Made by a program: the position numbers and the translations under genes. Below, one piece after another: positions 27,519-33,949 of a stretch of DNA of 45,705 bases (the first letter of the stretch is position 1; each line of letters starts with the position of its first letter). The stretch comes from Chlorobium sp. (lineage in GTDB: Bacteria > Bacteroidota > Chlorobiia > Chlorobiales > Chlorobiaceae). A model generated the notes under the pieces. That model saw only the letters and a list, made by a program, of their open reading frames with translations. It was not told the DNA's origin and made no database searches. Location of the stretch: contig SZXY01000139.1 in the NCBI GenBank assembly GCA_005843805.1, positions 1 through 45,705 of the forward strand. The letters are read 5' to 3'.

Positions 27519-28787
27519 TCACAGACTGCTGTCCCTCAGCACTCCGACCGGCTCAAGCCGCGCAGCCCTGGCAGAAGGAAGAATAGCAGCAAGCGTACTG
27601 ATAAGAACAGTGACACCGATGACCACAAGAAAATAGATGGGGTTATAGGACATGCTGAACCCGGTTTTGGTCAAAGGCCCCTGCGAGCTCTCTATTGGAA
27701 GACTGGCAAAAATATTTATCGCGCCAATAGCCAGCACCCCTCCGGCAAGCGCTCCGGCAAGCCCAACCATAAACCCTTCGAGCACAAACATGCTGACCAG
27801 TTGGAGAGCAGAAAAGCCAAACGACTTCATGATGGCAATATCCCGGCTCTTTTCAAACACGGTCGTAACGAGAATATTGGCCACCCCAAAACCCGAAACA
27901 ACTCCGACAAATGCCACCAGTGAAAAAACGATATAGCCAATACGTGTAAAAAGAGAGAGAATACTTGCATTCTCCTCCTGCCAGGTCATGCAGCGGTACC
28001 CGGTAATGCGCTCAAGCTCCCTTGCAAGACCGGAATTGTTCAGCGGATCAATCACTTTCAGCGCAATACCCGACACCTTGTTTGAGGGCAACCCTTCAAT
28101 GATCTGACCAAACTTCAGTGAGACAAAAACACTGTTATCGACCGCATTGATACCCGAAAAGAATATTCCCGCCACCTTGCACTGCCGACTTGCGCCTGAA
28201 GAGGGAATGATGATGATATCGTCATTCAGCTTGAGGTTCATATCCCTTGCCACGGTTCGCCCGACAAGGAGTGCGTTGGACGTTTTGGCAAACGAGGCTA
28301 TATCACCTTCGAGCAGTTTCTTCTGGATACCGCTGATGGCATCCTCCTTCTCGATCTGTACCCCCTTGAGCAGAAGCGGCTGGTTGCGGCTGCCCTTGAC
28401 CGCCATCACCTGTGAGACCACATAGGGTGAGGCGACAACAACCTGTTTTTGATATTGCCTGGAACTGAAAACTTCAAGAATCTGGCGATAATTGCGCACC
28501 TCTTCCCGATCGAGTTTCTGGATATTATCATCAACAAAAGCAACTTCAGAGTTCCCCTCTCTCTCAAAAAGATTGACTGGCATAGGATTCATCTTTTCGC
28601 CCTTGAGTGTTATATGGGGCGCCACATTGACAATGGTCTCGACAAAGGAATCCAGCAGTCCACGGGTCAGGGAGTTGGTGGTAATCAGCACCATCGTACT
28701 GACCGCTACCCCAAAAATAGTGGTCAGTGTCTGTCGGCGCCGCCCAAGCAGATGCCGCACAGCAATATCAAACAACGTTTTCAGCAT
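27519..28787 (-). CDS. ABC transporter permease, FtsX/LolC/MacB family
   Basis: A 422-residue permease with one N-terminal membrane helix (about 20-42, after the basic segment RHLLGRRRQTLTT), a large periplasmic domain (about 45-275) and three C-terminal helices (about 285-310, 335-365, 380-405), the type VII ABC (mechanotransmission) layout. LolC/E-type members extract lipoproteins and MacB-type members drive efflux. No cognate ATP-binding subunit is adjacent: the exporter next door already has its own ATPase, is on the other strand and is a different type. The DevC/LolC group is favoured by the C-terminal ending LPSARAARLEPVGVLRD. Confidence 0.85.
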   Translation of the reverse strand: MLKTLFDIAVRHLLGRRRQTLTTIFGVAVSTMVLITTNSLTRGLLDSFVETIVNVAPHITLKGEKMNPMPVNLFEREGNSEVAFVDDNIQKLDREEVRNYRQILEVFSSRQYQKQVVVASPYVVSQVMAVKGSRNQPLLLKGVQIEKEDAISGIQKKLLEGDIASFAKTSNALLVGRTVARDMNLKLNDDIIIIPSSGASRQCKVAGIFFSGINAVDNSVFVSLKFGQIIEGLPSNKVSGIALKVIDPLNNSGLARELERITGYRCMTWQEENASILSLFTRIGYIVFSLVAFVGVVSGFGVANILVTTVFEKSRDIAIMKSFGFSALQLVSMFVLEGFMVGLAGALAGGVLAIGAINIFASLPIESSQGPLTKTGFSMSYNPIYFLVVIGVTVLISTLAAILPSARAARLEPVGVLRDSSL

Positions 28788-28889
28788 GACGAAGCCATAA
28801 TAAATTTTGGCAAAAAGTTATGGGGAGTCTTGATAAACGAACAATAACGAATTCCCTTAAACCTTTAGCCATCTCAACACTTGAAAAAG

Positions 28890-29258
28890 TTATCTTGTCA
28901 ACTGATAATCATGAATCAATAAATCAGCAGAAAGATTCAATTTCGGGGTCAATTTTCTGATCATCTCAACAGTCAATTTACGTTTACGTCCAAGAACTTC
29001 CGAAACCCTGCTTTTGCCACCGATTGCATCAACAAGGTCACTTTGAGTTAATTGCATTTCTTCCATTCGAATCTTGATCGCTTCAATCGGATCTGGAGCT
29101 TCTACAAAATAATGCTTTTTCTCATATTCATCAATCATTAATCCAAGTATATCAGCTTCATCACTTTCTTCTGTTCCCACTATTGCATCAAAAATAACCT
29201 CTAATCTTTTTAATGCCATTTGGTAATCATCTTCTGTTTTTATCGGTTTAATATTCAT
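28890..29258 (-). CDS. higA: HigA-type antitoxin
   Basis: A 122-residue protein. The N-terminal part (MNIKPIKTEDDYQMALKRLE) is the HigA signature region that neutralises HigB; the C-terminal part (about 60-115) is an XRE-type helix-turn-helix (MQLTQSDLVDAIGGKSRVSEVL) that would bind the operon promoter. The toxin gene comes first, as is typical of higBA. Start: ATG 29258 has AGAG just before it and gives the family N-terminus; ATG 29270 directly abuts the higB stop codon and would add four residues. This is the first gene pair of the accessory island. Confidence 0.9.
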   Translation of the reverse strand: MNIKPIKTEDDYQMALKRLEVIFDAIVGTEESDEADILGLMIDEYEKKHYFVEAPDPIEAIKIRMEEMQLTQSDLVDAIGGKSRVSEVLGRKRKLTVEMIRKLTPKLNLSADLLIHDYQLTR

Positions 29259-29270
29259 AGCTCTTGACAT

Positions 29271-29567
29271 TTAAATTATATTTGCATCAATTTCATTATA
29301 TTCCTGATGAGTTCCAATGAATCGGATAAAAATCCATTGTTTTTCAAAATTAAATTTTGCAACTATTCTATACGAGTTTTCTTTTATGTTAAAAATAATC
29401 CGGTTATCTTTCAGGATACTGGCATTAGCATAAGTCTGCTTAACCTCATTAGGAGATTTCCAGTCAGAATTCATTACTGTATCATACCATGTCTTCAAAT
29501 GCTGCTCAACATCAGGATGCTTCTCCCAATATTTTCTTAATGTACTCTTTGCAAATATCCTGCACAT
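29271..29567 (-). CDS. higB: HigB-type mRNA interferase toxin
   Basis: A 98-residue RelE-superfamily toxin of the HigB group: TLRKYWEKHPDVEQHLKTWYD, then a basic beta-sheet core with NRIIFNIKENSYRIVAKFNF and WIFIRFIGTHQEYNEID at the C-terminus. These enzymes cut mRNA on the translating ribosome. It appears full length with no frame breaks. Its stop is directly followed by the higA ATG, so the two are coupled. Confidence 0.9.
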   Translation of the reverse strand: MCRIFAKSTLRKYWEKHPDVEQHLKTWYDTVMNSDWKSPNEVKQTYANASILKDNRIIFNIKENSYRIVAKFNFEKQWIFIRFIGTHQEYNEIDANII

Positions 29568-29586
29568 TTAAATCAAAATCAGATTT

Positions 29587-29592
29587 ATTATA
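29587..29592 (-). promoter_or_regulatory. Perfect -10 box upstream of higB
   Basis: TATAAT on the minus strand lies 19 nt before the higB ATG. No clear -35 box is seen (TGCGTC at 17 nt). The setting is what a self-repressed toxin-antitoxin promoter would look like. The remaining gap up to 29650 holds no gene. Confidence 0.4.
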
Positions 29593-29649
29593 TATTGCAT
29601 TGATACTATGACGCATTAATAAAATATTTTCTGACTGATAACCATGACT

Positions 29650-29787
29650 TTAGAGTCCCGGCAGATATCCAATAAAAACTTTAGATACTCCCTCCAATAT
29701 TGGCTTATACTTCAGAAGTATAGAACCTGTTTCATCGACCTTAAAATAACAAGATAAAATATCAGCATCGACAAGCACTCTATTCAT
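29650..29787 (-). pseudogene. Truncated VapC-like PIN toxin remnant
   Basis: A 45-residue frame starting MNRVLVDADILSCYFKVDET, which is the first strand of a PIN domain with its catalytic Asp (VDADIL). A complete VapC has about 130 residues with three more acidic residues; here the frame runs into unrelated sequence and stops. Its ATG overlaps the antitoxin stop codon (ATGAATAG), as in intact vapBC pairs. It is probably inactive. Confidence 0.7.
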
Positions 29788-30017
29788 CAATTCTTCTCCT
29801 GTTTCTTTGACGATTGCTTATCAATTTAGTTGTAAATTCATTAAATACAGTATCGTCAATATTTTGCCATGCTCCAGCAAATGATAAGGTTTTAGATTTT
29901 TTTATATTTCCTTCTTTCAAGTTTAGATAAAAAGTCATCTAACTCTTTCAATTTATCAGCAGGAATTTGATTAATTTTCCTTACTATTTGGCTTCTTCTC
30001 TGTGTATCAGTAATCAT
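29780..30017 (-). pseudogene. Frameshifted VapB-like antitoxin
   Basis: The first 42 codons (starting MITDTQRRSQIVRKINQI) read into a stop at 29892-29894. Removing one base from the run of seven A residues (29897-29903) restores a 78-residue antitoxin-like frame with the C-terminal segment TLSFAGAWQNIDDTVFNEF and stop at 29780-29782. That tail is familiar from antitoxins paired with PIN toxins. A one-base insertion (or a sequencing error, or slippage on A7) therefore splits the gene. It lies 63 nt downstream of the 58-residue protein gene. Confidence 0.7.
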
Positions 30018-30080
30018 CACAGTAGTGATAATTTTTATAGCAATCTATAAAACAGATTGTAACCCTCGTTGGGATAAGGA

Positions 30081-30257
30081 TTATCTCGCATTTATCTTTG
30101 GTGATTTTTTCAAAACCACTCTTTTAACCACTTTCTTTTTTTGCAATTTTCTGGCTCGAATAAACTCACTTATCTCTTTCCTTTCCTTGTCATTCAATGG
30201 CGGACTTTGTATGATAAGATCAACGCCGTCCTGTTCTTTTATTAAACCCATTATCAT
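30081..30257 (-). CDS. 58-residue basic protein coupled to the PD-(D/E)XK-like gene
   Basis: A short frame starting MIMGLIKEQDGVDLIIQSPP. Its second half (DKERKEISEFIRARKLQKKK onward) is helical and strongly basic, ending KSPKINAR. I do not recognise it. Its ATG overlaps the upstream stop as ATGA, the third such junction in the cassette, which argues it is translated; a second in-frame ATG (30251) is an alternative start. It could be a small nucleic-acid-binding or inhibitory subunit, which is a guess. Confidence 0.55.
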   Translation of the reverse strand: MIMGLIKEQDGVDLIIQSPPLNDKERKEISEFIRARKLQKKKVVKRVVLKKSPKINAR

Positions 30258-30754
30258 TTAATCACTATTTCAGCTTGCGCATCAATTCTGAAACCAGTTC
30301 TTTGAAAAAAAGCTTTTTTCTCTGCTGCATCAATAACCGTAAAACCGGGATGCCTTTTGTTGCAAGCACAAGCCTTCTTGTACCTGAACCCTTCAAGATT
30401 GTGGTTCGCACGAAGCAGCTTGACTGTATTTTCTAATTGCTTTTTTGCATCAGGGAGCCAACCGCCTGTGCCTTGCTTTTTCAGTTCAACCAAAAAGAGA
30501 GTATCAGAAAATGAAAGCAGGCCGTCACAAGTGCTTTCCTTATCCTTTGTGCCATCCTTAAAGACAATTACGCAATAGTCAATCGCTGTGAAGGAAATAG
30601 CAACCTGATTACAATTTATAACTTTTGCATTCCACCTGGCACTATCAGTAGCATTGGTATAAGCCTTTGTTCCATTCTCATCATCGCATATTCCAAAAAG
30701 CTCGTCACTCCTTGAAGGCTCCCTGCACTCTGTGTCAAAAAAATTCACCCTCAT
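30254..30754 (-). CDS. PD-(D/E)XK nuclease-like protein of the accessory cassette
   Basis: A 166-residue soluble protein. The central part has Asp77, then Glu90-Leu-Lys92 (CDGLLSFSDTLFLVELKK), the D...ExK arrangement of PD-(D/E)XK nucleases, followed by a helix with Gln106 (PDAKKQLENTVKLL) as in many members of the fold. Eight cysteines/histidines, several in KKACACNKRHPG, might bind metal. I know no named family for it. It overlaps the ATPase stop and the 58-residue frame start as ATGA on both sides. Together with an OLD/AAA15-like ATPase this resembles ATPase-nuclease defence modules; the nuclease call is a motif-level inference. Confidence 0.6.
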   Translation of the reverse strand: MRVNFFDTECREPSRSDELFGICDDENGTKAYTNATDSARWNAKVINCNQVAISFTAIDYCVIVFKDGTKDKESTCDGLLSFSDTLFLVELKKQGTGGWLPDAKKQLENTVKLLRANHNLEGFRYKKACACNKRHPGFTVIDAAEKKAFFQRTGFRIDAQAEIVIK

Positions 30755-31998
30755 AGCTCTTGCTCAATTTCAAGAAGTGAATCAAAAAGATGATTTCCTT
30801 CGGCAAGCATATCATTCAAATAATTTCTGTCAGAAGGTATTCCTTCAACAGAATCCAGTTTTTTAATAGTGCCATCCTTTTCGTTCAATTGAAATACGAT
30901 GACACTATCATCTGAAAGCAAAACTTTTTCAGGAATAAGCTTATACAACTTCGGCAGCATCAGCAGCTTTCTTTCTGATTTTTTTATCTGGCCTTCCAGA
31001 TATTTTCCTTGAATTGCTACGCTTAAATAGTTGATAATGTAAGGGCTATGGGTAGTCATTATCAATTTGTTACCTGTATTCATACCATTAAACTTCAGGA
31101 GGCTCTGAAGCACCTGCCATTGAGAGTTTGGAAACAAATTCTGTTCTGGTTCTTCAACAATATTGATAAAAGCTGTTTTATTGAATCTGGATGAAAGCAC
31201 AGTGATAGCAACTCTCTATTGTTCATCTGTTAAACTTTCATTACTCCAGATTTCTTCAAAACCTTTTTTAAAGCGCTGCATCTCTTCACTGCTCATTGGT
31301 TCTTTACTGGATTCGCTCTGCTTTTTAACAGAGTTTGCCAAATATCCTGAAACCATATACAATGGAACAAGTGACTGAAATCCACTCGAAACATCAGTTA
31401 GCTTTACCTTGTAACCATCTCCTTTTAAATTGAGCGTATCGTTGAGTTTGTCGTATTCAATATCAACGTCGTTGACAGGAAGTTTTTCCAATCCTTTCAT
31501 TTCATTCTTTGCATTATCAAACTCGGTCAGGAACTCCTTCAATGATGCAGATGAAAGCTTTAACTCTTTTGGTGTTTTAACATAGGCAATAAAGTTTCGT
31601 TCCGCAGGCACATACATTATCTGAGGCAGTGGATACGGTTTGCTAGAAACTTCATTAATGATCAACCTGCCATTGTCATACTTGACAGAATAGGCGTCAC
31701 CTTCATATTCAATGGCGCTGTTATCTTTGCCATTGGTTTTAAGGTAGCTTTCTATACGATGGTAATTCAGGAACTGATTTTTAAGTTTGTTCTTCTTCTC
31801 GAACCATTTTTTATTGTAATCACCCCTTACCAAGGCTTTTTCAATCCAGGTAAAGGTTGATATCAACTTTGCTACCGTGCTTTTTCCCGAACCCTGATTA
31901 CCGATAAAAACGGTAACCTTTTGGACATCAATCCAGCCATCATTCTCCTCATACCCTTTTTTTATAGGGCCGAAATTCTGTATCTTAATTCTGCTCAT
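30751..31998 (-). pseudogene. AAA15/OLD-like ATPase interrupted by one in-frame amber codon
   Basis: One continuous frame of 416 codons with a TAG at codon 261 (31216-31218). Before it: N-terminal strand MSRIKIQNFGPIKKG, Walker A GNQGSGKST (33-41), YVPAERNF (about 129-136) and the signature-like SSGFQSL (204-210). After it, in the same frame: RVAIT, Walker B FINIVEEPEQNLFP (277-290) and the H-loop THSPY (316-320). Neither half alone (31216-31998, or from a GTG at 31200 to 30751) has a complete ATP site. No other break is seen, so the mutation looks recent, or the codon is read through. The order of motifs is that of AAA15/OLD-type ATPases, many of which act in phage defence. Start and stop overlap neighbours as ATGA. 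Confidence 0.85.
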
Positions 31999-32102
31999 TT
32001 TATATCACACCCAGAAAATTCATCATCATGATACTCACCTCTTGTTGCTTCTAACTTCCGAAACAGTTCGCACAGTTGATGCTGTACCTCCGTGGCCGTC
32101 AT
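31995..32102 (-). CDS. 35-residue frame coupled to the ATPase start
   Basis: A short frame starting MTATEVQHQLCELFRKLEATR and ending in an acidic stretch and DIK; its TGA overlaps the ATPase ATG as ATGA. It has no Shine-Dalgarno and no alternative upstream start in frame before a stop. It may be a real leader peptide or small subunit, or the 3' remnant of a lost upstream gene. The overlap pattern shared with the next two junctions is the main reason to list it. Confidence 0.35.
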   Translation of the reverse strand: MTATEVQHQLCELFRKLEATRGEYHDDEFSGCDIK

Positions 32103-32228
32103 GAAAAAAAGCCAAAACGTATCACAGCGTTTCTGTTTTTGACAGATACTTTCAGAAAAGCTTTTGATAAGGACACTGTGTCAGTCAAAGAAATGTACGT
32201 ATTTCACAGGAAAGCAAAAAGCAAGAAC

Positions 32229-32402
32229 TCAAAAGCTGGATGGTTCTTTGCAGCGCCTCTTGTTGACCAGTTCAGCAAGCTTGGTAAAGCTGTCTCCAAA
32301 TTTTTTCGGGAAATTGAACAACACCTCTCCATAAAAGAGATGACGCCTGGTTTTCTCTGCGGCTGGAAGTGCATTATCTTCATCTTCAAAGAACATGGTC
32401 AT
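32229..32402 (-). CDS. 57-residue frame downstream of the orphan antitoxin gene
   Basis: A frame starting MTMFFEDEDNALPAAEKTRR and ending RRCKEPSSF. It begins 2 nt after the antitoxin stop, the position expected for a toxin, but it is too short for and does not resemble a RelE/ParE toxin. It could be a remnant or a chance frame; a longer plus-strand frame covers the same bases. Confidence 0.25.
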   Translation of the reverse strand: MTMFFEDEDNALPAAEKTRRHLFYGEVLFNFPKKFGDSFTKLAELVNKRRCKEPSSF

Positions 32403-32404
32403 GT

Positions 32405-32611
32405 TCAGGATTTGATGAAAACTTCTTCCATCGGAATAGCTTCAAGCAGACCTTCCCTGTAGCTTTTGAGACGTTTCTCTGCCTCTTCAACCCATAGTTC
32501 ATTAATTTTCGGGTCGGGCTCATCAAGGCTTCGCAGTAATCCATCGATAATAATCAGTCGATAGACCGGCTTGAGGGCCATTGCCTGCTCAAGTATCTCT
32601 TTTGTATTCAT
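32405..32611 (-). CDS. Addiction-module antitoxin (TIGR02574-like)
   Basis: A 68-residue protein starting MNTKEILEQAMALKPVYRL. The pattern LLRSLDEPDPKINELWVEEAEKRL and the ending EAIPMEEVF is that of the putative addiction-module component family, antitoxins normally paired with a RelE/ParE-type toxin encoded just downstream. Start: GGAGG lies 5 nt before the ATG at 32611 (an ATG directly upstream at 32614 is too close). No complete toxin follows. Confidence 0.8.
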   Translation of the reverse strand: MNTKEILEQAMALKPVYRLIIIDGLLRSLDEPDPKINELWVEEAEKRLKSYREGLLEAIPMEEVFIKS

Positions 32612-32614
32612 CAT

Positions 32615-32875
32615 CGCCTCCTCATTTGCAGAGTCATAGTGTTTGATCTTTTACCAATGCGATATACCTTTCAATATACCATGAAATCAGGTGTCACGGA
32701 GTTGGGGCAGATAAAATGAAAGCCGATGACAAGGGAAAAGCAGGCACCAGGCTCTTGCGATTCAACAAATAAAGGGGTTGCGGAGCCTCTTCTGTTATTA
32801 CGGGTTCATGAATATGGGATATTTTTATTAAGTTGTACATTTTACAATTCCTGCAAGGAACTTATCCGGGACGGC
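32615..32875. other. Intergenic region upstream of the IPP isomerase
   Basis: Divergent spacer between the island and the isoprenoid operon. The frame of the isomerase is open back to 32726, but that part is not family-like. I see no convincing promoter pair or hairpin. Confidence 0.35.
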
Positions 32876-33949
32876 ATGAGCGACAGAACAGGTAACAGAA
32901 CAATCGAGCGGAAGCAAAGCCATGTGGATATCTGCCTGCATGGTGAGGTGGCCTTCAGCGGAAAAACCACAGGGTTTGAGAAGCTTGAGTTTGAGCATAA
33001 TGCCTTGCCGGAAATTGCTTTTTCGGAGGTTGACCTTTCGACGACCTTTCTTGGCAGAAAGATCAATGCACCGCTGATGATCTCTTCCATGACGGGCGGG
33101 TACAGCGAAGCGGCAACCCTGAACCAGCGTCTTGCAGAGGCTGCTGAACGGTTTGGTATTCCGCTTGGTGTTGGCAGCATGCGCCAGGCACTTGAAAATT
33201 CGTCGTATCGGGAAAGTTTTGCCATAGTAAGAAAATATGCCCCGTCCGTGCAGATTTTTGCCAATATCGGTGCGCCGGAAGTTGCCAAAGGGTTAACCGA
33301 CAATGAGATCGCGATCATGCTCGATCTTCTGGAAGCTGACGGGCTTATCGTTCATCTCAATGCGGCACAGGAGCTTTTTCAGCCTGAAGGGAATACTGAT
33401 TTCAGCCATTTTCTTGATCGACTCGCCATCATCACGGCAAAAATTTCCGTTCCGGTGATTGCAAAAGAGGTGGGATGCGGCATTTCGGCTGCTGCTGCCC
33501 TCAAGCTTCTTGAGGCTGGCGTTAAAGTGATTGATGTGGCTGGTGCTGGTGGCATCAGTTGGCAGAAGGTTGAGGAGATCCGCTATACAAGAGAGTTTGG
33601 ACAGGAAAAACGGTTCAGCTTGCCAGCTCTCGATGAGCTGTTGAACTGGGGAGTTCCTACAGCTCAATGCTTGTTTGATATCAGTGAGCTTAAAAATAAG
33701 TATCCTGATTTTTCTGAAATTGAAATTATCGCTTCGGGTGGAATCCACAGCGGCATAGATATTGCTAAATCATTGGCGCTTGGTGCGCAACTTGCCGCTT
33801 CGGCGAGGTATATTCTCAAGGCCCTTCATGAAGGCGCGCTTGAAGAGACTATTGAAACCTGGCTGAACGATCTCCGGGCAGTGATGTTCCTGACTGGTTC
33901 TGCTAAAACAGAAGAACTTCGCTGCAAACGCCTAATCATTAAACCATGA
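32876..33949 (+). CDS. fni: Isopentenyl-diphosphate delta-isomerase, type 2 (FMN-dependent)
   Basis: A 357-residue TIM-barrel flavoenzyme interconverting IPP and DMAPP. Typical segments are [10 protein letters not shown] at the N-terminus, [15 protein letters not shown] (about 62-76), [21 protein letters not shown] (about 160), the FMN-binding [11 protein letters not shown] and VAGAGGISW, and [19 protein letters not shown] near the C-terminus. The start at 32876 fits the family; the frame is open 150 nt further upstream without similarity. The TGA overlaps the next ATG, so IPP/DMAPP balance and prenyl chain building are co-expressed. In this organism the products feed chlorobactene, bacteriochlorophyll tails and menaquinone. 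Confidence 0.95.

What the first reader, a model, noticed from the sequence alone, without database searches (positions are those of the whole stretch)
30081..32102. Four reading frames chained by three ATGA overlaps: candidate ATPase-nuclease system
On the minus strand, a 35-residue frame, an AAA15/OLD-like ATPase, a PD-(D/E)XK-like 166-residue protein and a 58-residue basic protein are joined at 31998, 30754 and 30257 by the same 4-base stop/start overlap. This gives strict translational coupling and suggests subunits of one machine. The block sits in an AT-rich island among toxin-antitoxin genes. ATPase plus nuclease with small partners is a recurring layout of phage defence (OLD/Gabija, Septu, PARIS-like), but I cannot match these genes to a named system.
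Basis: partly seen in the sequence, partly recalled or inferred. Interest (0 to 1): 0.72.

Follow-up and report, generated by a model that had tools for sequence, protein, structure and literature searches.

The report
Broken copy of candidate phage-defence pair
In a Chlorobium-type green sulfur bacterium (placed by gene content) this stretch holds a two-gene candidate anti-phage system, an ATPase and a small nuclease-like protein already catalogued as PDC-M29 but never tested as far as I could find, and in this genome the ATPase gene is cut in two by a stop codon while the two extra small frames do not belong to it.

Summary
The block is a copy of the two-gene candidate defence system that PADLOC catalogues as PDC-M29: ATPase PDC-M29A (E 9e-191 when read through the stop) and nuclease-like PDC-M29B (E 1.6e-58). 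Only these two genes belong together. A neighbouring B was found for 19 of 20 full-length A copies in a 395-genome sample of the phylum, and 15 of 18 intact homologues keep the 4-base ATGA overlap. All 18 homologues have Lys or Arg there, and no CUA-anticodon tRNA was found. So this copy is probably inactive, or the base is a sequencing error. Defence context elsewhere is strong: inside type I restriction-modification operons, beside a CRISPR array, beside HEC-01. In Chlorobium the window's site is a variable toxin-antitoxin/defence spot. Best mechanism (inferred): PARIS-like, the ATPase senses infection and controls a PD-(D/E)XK-type effector. One phage (Microcystis phage Mic1) carries an intact A without B.

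The parts
31216..31998 (-). PDC-M29A, N-terminal piece (260 codons): Walker A GNQGSGKS at 31902-31879, signature-like SSGFQS at 31389-31372
   Evidence: PDC-M29A E 9e-191 when read through; AAA_15; motifs invariant in homologues
31216..31218 (-). in-frame TAG at codon 261 of the ATPase gene; Lys or Arg in all 18 homologues
   Evidence: no CUA-anticodon tRNA found
30751..31215 (-). PDC-M29A, C-terminal piece, same phase: Walker B Glu pair at 31155-31150, switch His at 31050-31048; possible GTG restart at 31200
30751..30754 (-). ATGA stop/start overlap of ATPase and nuclease-like gene, conserved
   Evidence: 15 of 18 homologues identical in layout
30254..30754 (-). PDC-M29B, intact 166-codon gene; PD-(D/E)XK-type motif D77 (30526-30524), E90-x-K92 (30487-30479), Q106 (30439-30437)
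   Evidence: E 1.6e-58; conservation; weak PDDEXK_9 in two homologues
31995..32102 (-). 35-codon frame, judged not to be a gene of the system
   Evidence: not found upstream of any homologue
30081..30257 (-). 58-codon frame, unrelated small gene; start more likely at 30251 (MGLI...)
   Evidence: two homologues in the genus, away from any A/B pair
29783..30017 (-). vapB-like antitoxin gene broken by a frameshift
   Evidence: tblastn with the G057 VapB, two frames, E 2.6e-29
29731..29787 (-). vapC-like toxin remnant, about 19 residues
   Evidence: E 1.9e-6
29271..29567 (-). HigB-like toxin, apparently intact
   Evidence: PF09907 E 3.7e-30
28890..29270 (-). HigA-like antitoxin (helix-turn-helix), next to HigB
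   Evidence: position and same pair at this site in G044, G056, G059; weak HTH_3
32405..32614 (-). solitary antitoxin-like gene (Unstab_antitox)
   Evidence: PF09720 E 1e-13
27519..28787 (-). permease gene, left border of the variable spot
   Evidence: present in 65 of 65 genomes of the genus
32876..33949 (+). fni-like gene (isopentenyl-diphosphate isomerase, named from its sequence by eye), right border of the spot
   Evidence: present in 65 of 65 genomes of the genus

Best explanation
It is a copy of the candidate two-gene defence system PDC-M29, sitting in a toxin-antitoxin/defence spot of Chlorobium-type genomes and broken here by a stop codon in the ATPase gene. In intact copies the mechanism I think most likely is as follows. 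The ABC-type ATPase (A) is made together with B through the overlapping start, holds B in check or positions it, and senses infection. Once triggered, it releases or activates B, a metal-dependent PD-(D/E)XK-type nuclease that cuts nucleic acid and stops phage growth. Shown here: the gene pair, its conservation and coupling, the ATPase motifs, the catalytic-type motif of B, the defence context and the stop codon. Inferred: that B is a nuclease, that A controls B, the trigger, and that the window copy is inactive.
For: PADLOC PDC-M29A E 9e-191 and PDC-M29B E 1.6e-58. A and B adjacent in 19 of 20 full-length copies in the phylum sample and on a Persicobacter plasmid. ATGA overlap kept in 15 of 18. 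Walker A, signature, Walker B Glu pair and switch His conserved. B: E90, K92, Q106 invariant and D77 nearly so; weak PDDEXK_9 over that stretch in two members. Defence context: inside type I R-M operons of G043, G014 and G248, probably also G004 and G040, beside a 37-repeat CRISPR array in G050, beside HEC-01 in G167. Variable spot between the permease and fni-like genes: median gap 119 bases, 15 of 60 above 350, with higBA, vapBC, a SIR2-like protein or PDC-M29 as cargo. Stop: sense codon in all 18 homologues, no CUA tRNA found. PARIS precedent for the layout (PMC12409363).
Against: No experiment and no solved relative of B. The structure models are poor (B pLDDT 34; A 53). The PDDEXK_9 hits are below the curated cut-off. 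Not every homologue lies beside known defence genes (for example L054, L017, L051). dN/dS near 0.1 on both sides of the stop fits a working gene and a sequencing error as well as a very recent break.
Confidence: 0.68

Rival explanations
1. The stop codon is a sequencing or assembly error and the organism carries an intact, working PDC-M29 operon.
For: No other lesion in A or B. dN/dS is about 0.1 before and after the stop, as in intact pairs, and A shows no change at columns otherwise invariant.
Against: Decay is usual at this site: vapB frameshifted and vapC truncated next door, and G052 has a deleted copy of the system. The genome is 99.95% complete. No read data were available.
Confidence: 0.25
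2. The two pieces are both translated (restart at GTG 31200, 15 bases after the stop) and work as a split ATPase with B.
For: An in-frame GTG lies five codons after the stop; B is intact. In a distant relative (L057) the homologous ATPase is also read as two frames, 252 and 148 codons, before a B-like gene.
Against: No clear ribosome-binding site before the GTG. All 18 close homologues are unsplit.
Confidence: 0.06
3. It is a member of a known ATPase-nuclease system (PARIS, Gabija/OLD or Septu).
For: The ATPase profile is distantly similar to AriA (E 7e-20), GajA and PtuA.
Against: PDC-M29A scores 632 bits against 70 for AriA. No AriB, UvrD-type helicase or HNH family match for B and no Toprim match for A.
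Confidence: 0.03
4. A/B is not a defence system but a repair or mobile-element housekeeping pair.
For: Some homologues lie among metabolic genes (L051, L054).
Against: Patchy distribution (20 of 395 genomes), positions inside type I R-M operons and next to CRISPR and HEC-01, and the variable-spot location.
Confidence: 0.1

Closest known systems
PDC-M29 (PADLOC-DB phage defence candidate; models PDLC04562, PDLC04563, PDLC04564)
   Same: Both proteins match their models over full length, in the same order, with overlapping genes.
   Different: The ATPase gene here carries an in-frame stop; two unrelated small frames lie beside it.
PARIS (AriA ATPase plus AriB Toprim nuclease; PMC12409363)
   Same: Two genes: an ABC-type ATPase and a small separate effector nuclease; AriA is among the nearest other ATPase profiles (E 7e-20).
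   Different: B has a D...ExK...Q motif and no AriB match, so it is not a Toprim effector by the tests made; the trigger is unknown.
Septu (PtuA ATPase plus PtuB HNH nuclease)
   Same: An ATPase plus a small nuclease.
   Different: No HNH match for B; PtuA is only a distant profile match (E 2.9e-10).
Gabija / OLD class 2 (GajA plus GajB; PMC10568477)
   Same: OLD/AAA15-type ATPase core.
   Different: No Toprim domain in A and no UvrD-type helicase partner.
HEC-01 (PADLOC candidate: ATPase plus DUF4276)
   Same: A two-gene ATPase candidate system, lying directly beside PDC-M29 in G167.
   Different: Different ATPase family and a DUF4276 partner.

Membership tests
PDC-M29 | ATPase matching PDC-M29A over full length | tested here: met
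   E 9e-191, residues 1-414, with the TAG read through
PDC-M29 | adjacent PDC-M29B | tested here: met
   E 1.6e-58, residues 1-165; ATGA overlap
PDC-M29 | both genes intact | tested here: not met
   in-frame TAG at codon 261 of A; B intact
PDC-M29 | anti-phage activity | not testable with these tools
   no paper naming PDC-M29 in the searched library
PD-(D/E)XK nuclease (B) | D...(D/E)xK catalytic motif | tested here: met
   E90 and K92 invariant, D77 nearly so (Glu in one), Q106 invariant, 17 sequences
PD-(D/E)XK nuclease (B) | PD-(D/E)XK core fold | tested here: inconclusive
   AlphaFold pLDDT 34; weak PDDEXK_9 below cut-off in two of 17; no PDB relative
PARIS | AriA-type ATPase | tested here: inconclusive
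   AriA E 7e-20, but 70 bits against 632 for PDC-M29A
PARIS | AriB Toprim nuclease | tested here: not met
   B matches only PDC-M29B models
Gabija / OLD | Toprim domain fused to the ATPase, and GajB helicase | tested here: not met
   no Toprim match in A; partner is PDC-M29B
Septu | HNH nuclease PtuB | tested here: not met
   no HNH or PtuB match for B

The most novel reading that the evidence does not exclude
PDC-M29 is a guard of type I restriction-modification: a PARIS-like sensor ATPase that frees a PD-(D/E)XK effector, instead of a Toprim tRNase, when a phage disables restriction. This would explain why it lies between hsdS and hsdR in several genomes. The orphan A gene of Microcystis phage Mic1 would then be a decoy or a captured sensor that blocks host B.
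Probability: 0.2. Interest if true: 0.65.

Novelty: new member of a known kind. Interest (0 to 1): 0.36.

Why it matters
The family is catalogued but, as far as I could find, untested. The data here cut the proposed four-gene machine to a two-gene pair, point to intact homologues to test (for instance those inside type I R-M operons), suggest a PD-(D/E)XK effector in place of Toprim or HNH, and supply a phage with the ATPase gene alone as a natural probe of the mechanism. They also show that defence and toxin-antitoxin genes at this Chlorobium spot turn over and decay, so the window copy is the wrong one to clone.

Tried and rejected
Four-gene operon: rejected because the 35- and 58-residue frames are not conserved beside A and B. 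Stop codon as a recoded codon: no CUA tRNA among the tRNA genes found, and no homologue has a stop there. 35-residue frame as a scrap of a RhuM-type gene (which lies just upstream of A in L045): likeness not significant (E 0.02). Sequence search of the PDB with the B profile: nothing; with A: only FtsE-type ATPases. Pfam, NCBIfam and PHROGs for B: nothing beyond weak PDDEXK_9. Viral contigs with the B profile: none; with the A profile: two distant hits. E. coli genomes: no match. Literature search for PDC-M29 by name: no paper.

Full report
What is there. The window is a 45.7-kb contig of a 2.38-Mb genome. On the minus strand lie a frame 31998-31216 (260 codons), a frame 31200-30751 (149 codons), a frame 30754-30254 (166 codons) and small frames 32102-31995 (35) and 30257-30081 (58). 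The first two are one gene cut by TAG at codon 261; read through, they give a 415-residue protein.

Identity. Read through, the ATPase matches PADLOC PDC-M29A at E 9e-191 over residues 1-414, and the 166-residue protein matches PDC-M29B at E 1.6e-58. AriA, NsnB, GajA and PtuA are far weaker matches to the ATPase. Pfam sees AAA_15 and AAA_21 in the ATPase and nothing in B or in the 35- and 58-residue frames.

Two genes, not four. In a 395-genome sample of the phylum the PDC-M29A profile finds 20 full-length copies, and a neighbouring PDC-M29B was found for all but one, a second copy in G014. The 58-residue frame has only two relatives in 65 genomes of the genus, on contigs away from any A/B pair. 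The 35-residue frame has no counterpart upstream of the 18 homologues, where the corresponding frame has 0-32 codons. Since the ATPase starts ATGA, a stop/start overlap with any frame in that phase is automatic. The A/B overlap at 30754 is real: 15 of 18 homologues keep exactly ATGA, two have longer overlaps and one has none.

The stop codon. All 18 homologues have Lys or Arg at codon 261 (AAA, AAG, AGA, AGG, CGA or CGG) and none is interrupted. The stop parts Walker A and the signature motif from the Walker B Glu pair and the switch His, so neither piece can be a complete ATPase. No tRNA with a CUA anticodon was found among the genome's tRNA genes. dN/dS is about 0.1 before and after the stop, as in intact pairs. 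The lesion is therefore very recent, or it is a sequencing error; I cannot decide between them. B is intact, but if its translation depends on the ATPase being read to 30754 it should be reduced (inference).

The B protein. Over 17 sequences E90, K92 and Q106 are invariant, D77 nearly so, and W41, N47, F55-A57, D59, C61 and C76 are invariant too. D...E-x-K...Q is the arrangement of PD-(D/E)XK nucleases (general knowledge). Two homologues give weak PDDEXK_9 hits over this stretch (E 0.0024 and 0.005, below the cut-off). The AlphaFold model is of no use (pLDDT 34). The nuclease assignment is probable, not proven.

Context. In the genus the junction between the permease gene and the fni-like gene is short (median 119 bases at 60 junctions) but exceeds 350 bases in 15, including this window (4,088 bases). 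The cargo differs: higBA in G044, G056 and G059; vapBC in G057 and G039; a protein with SIR2 and TPR likeness in G044; and PDC-M29 in G027, G033 and this window. In the window a vapB is frameshifted and a vapC cut to about 19 residues beside the system, so decay is usual here. Elsewhere PDC-M29 lies inside type I R-M operons (G043, G014, G248 by Pfam; probably also G004 and G040, whose downstream gene begins like the confirmed HsdR), about 470 bases from a CRISPR array of 37 repeats (G050), and next to HEC-01 (G167). G052 holds a deleted remnant.

Evolution and mobility. Trees of A and B are broadly alike, but L017 and L018 sit differently in the two, which suggests occasional partner exchange. 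A complete pair lies on a Persicobacter plasmid. Microcystis phage Mic1 carries a full-length, motif-bearing A (44% identical over 98%) and no B anywhere in its record.

Mechanism. The closest studied layout is PARIS, in which a hexameric ATPase holds AriB and releases it when phage proteins such as Ocr bind (PMC12409363). I think PDC-M29 works in this general way with a PD-(D/E)XK effector. This is likeness of working, not membership: B is not Toprim by the tests made, and A is far closer to its own family. The position between hsdS and hsdR makes guarding of restriction an attractive but untested trigger.

Verdict. Ordinary in kind (a catalogued candidate system), useful in detail, and broken in this genome as sequenced.

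Noticed in passing
L116:4001-5239 (Microcystis phage Mic1, MN013189.1:16586-17824): A phage carries an intact PDC-M29A homologue (44% identical, 98% covered) beside a DNA adenine methylase, with no PDC-M29B anywhere in the phage record. It could be a decoy, a captured sensor or something else.
   Followed up: partly
window 28788-32875: The gap between the permease gene and the fni-like gene is a variable toxin-antitoxin/defence spot of the genus: 15 of 60 junctions exceed 350 bases, with different cargo.
   Followed up: yes
window 29731-30017: A vapBC pair in decay: vapB frameshifted, vapC reduced to about 19 residues.
   Followed up: yes
L064:8186-13572 (G014:C8): An orphan PDC-M29A without room for a B, near a second, distant ATPase/nuclease-like pair and a DNA methyltransferase-like gene.
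   Followed up: partly
L056:8050-9884, L057:7167-8744: Distant ATPase plus B-like pairs with overlapping genes suggest a wider family around PDC-M29; in L057 the ATPase is read as two frames, 252 and 148 codons.
   Followed up: partly
L050:1903-2606 (G052:C8): A second broken PDC-M29 copy, with internal deletions in A and a truncated B, near what looks like a CRISPR array (by eye, from repeated translations).
   Followed up: partly
L017 and L018: A and B sit differently in their trees (L017: distant A, near B; L018: near A, more distant B), which hints at partner exchange.
   Followed up: partly
window 30254-30754: B has three invariant cysteines (C10, C61, C76) besides the nuclease-type motif; their role is unknown.
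   Followed up: no
L117:2639-4202 (Bacteroides finegoldii plasmid, NZ_OY725969.1): A distant A homologue (29% identical) overlaps a 166-codon hypothetical gene inside a polysaccharide gene cluster; possibly another pair of the wider family.
   Followed up: no
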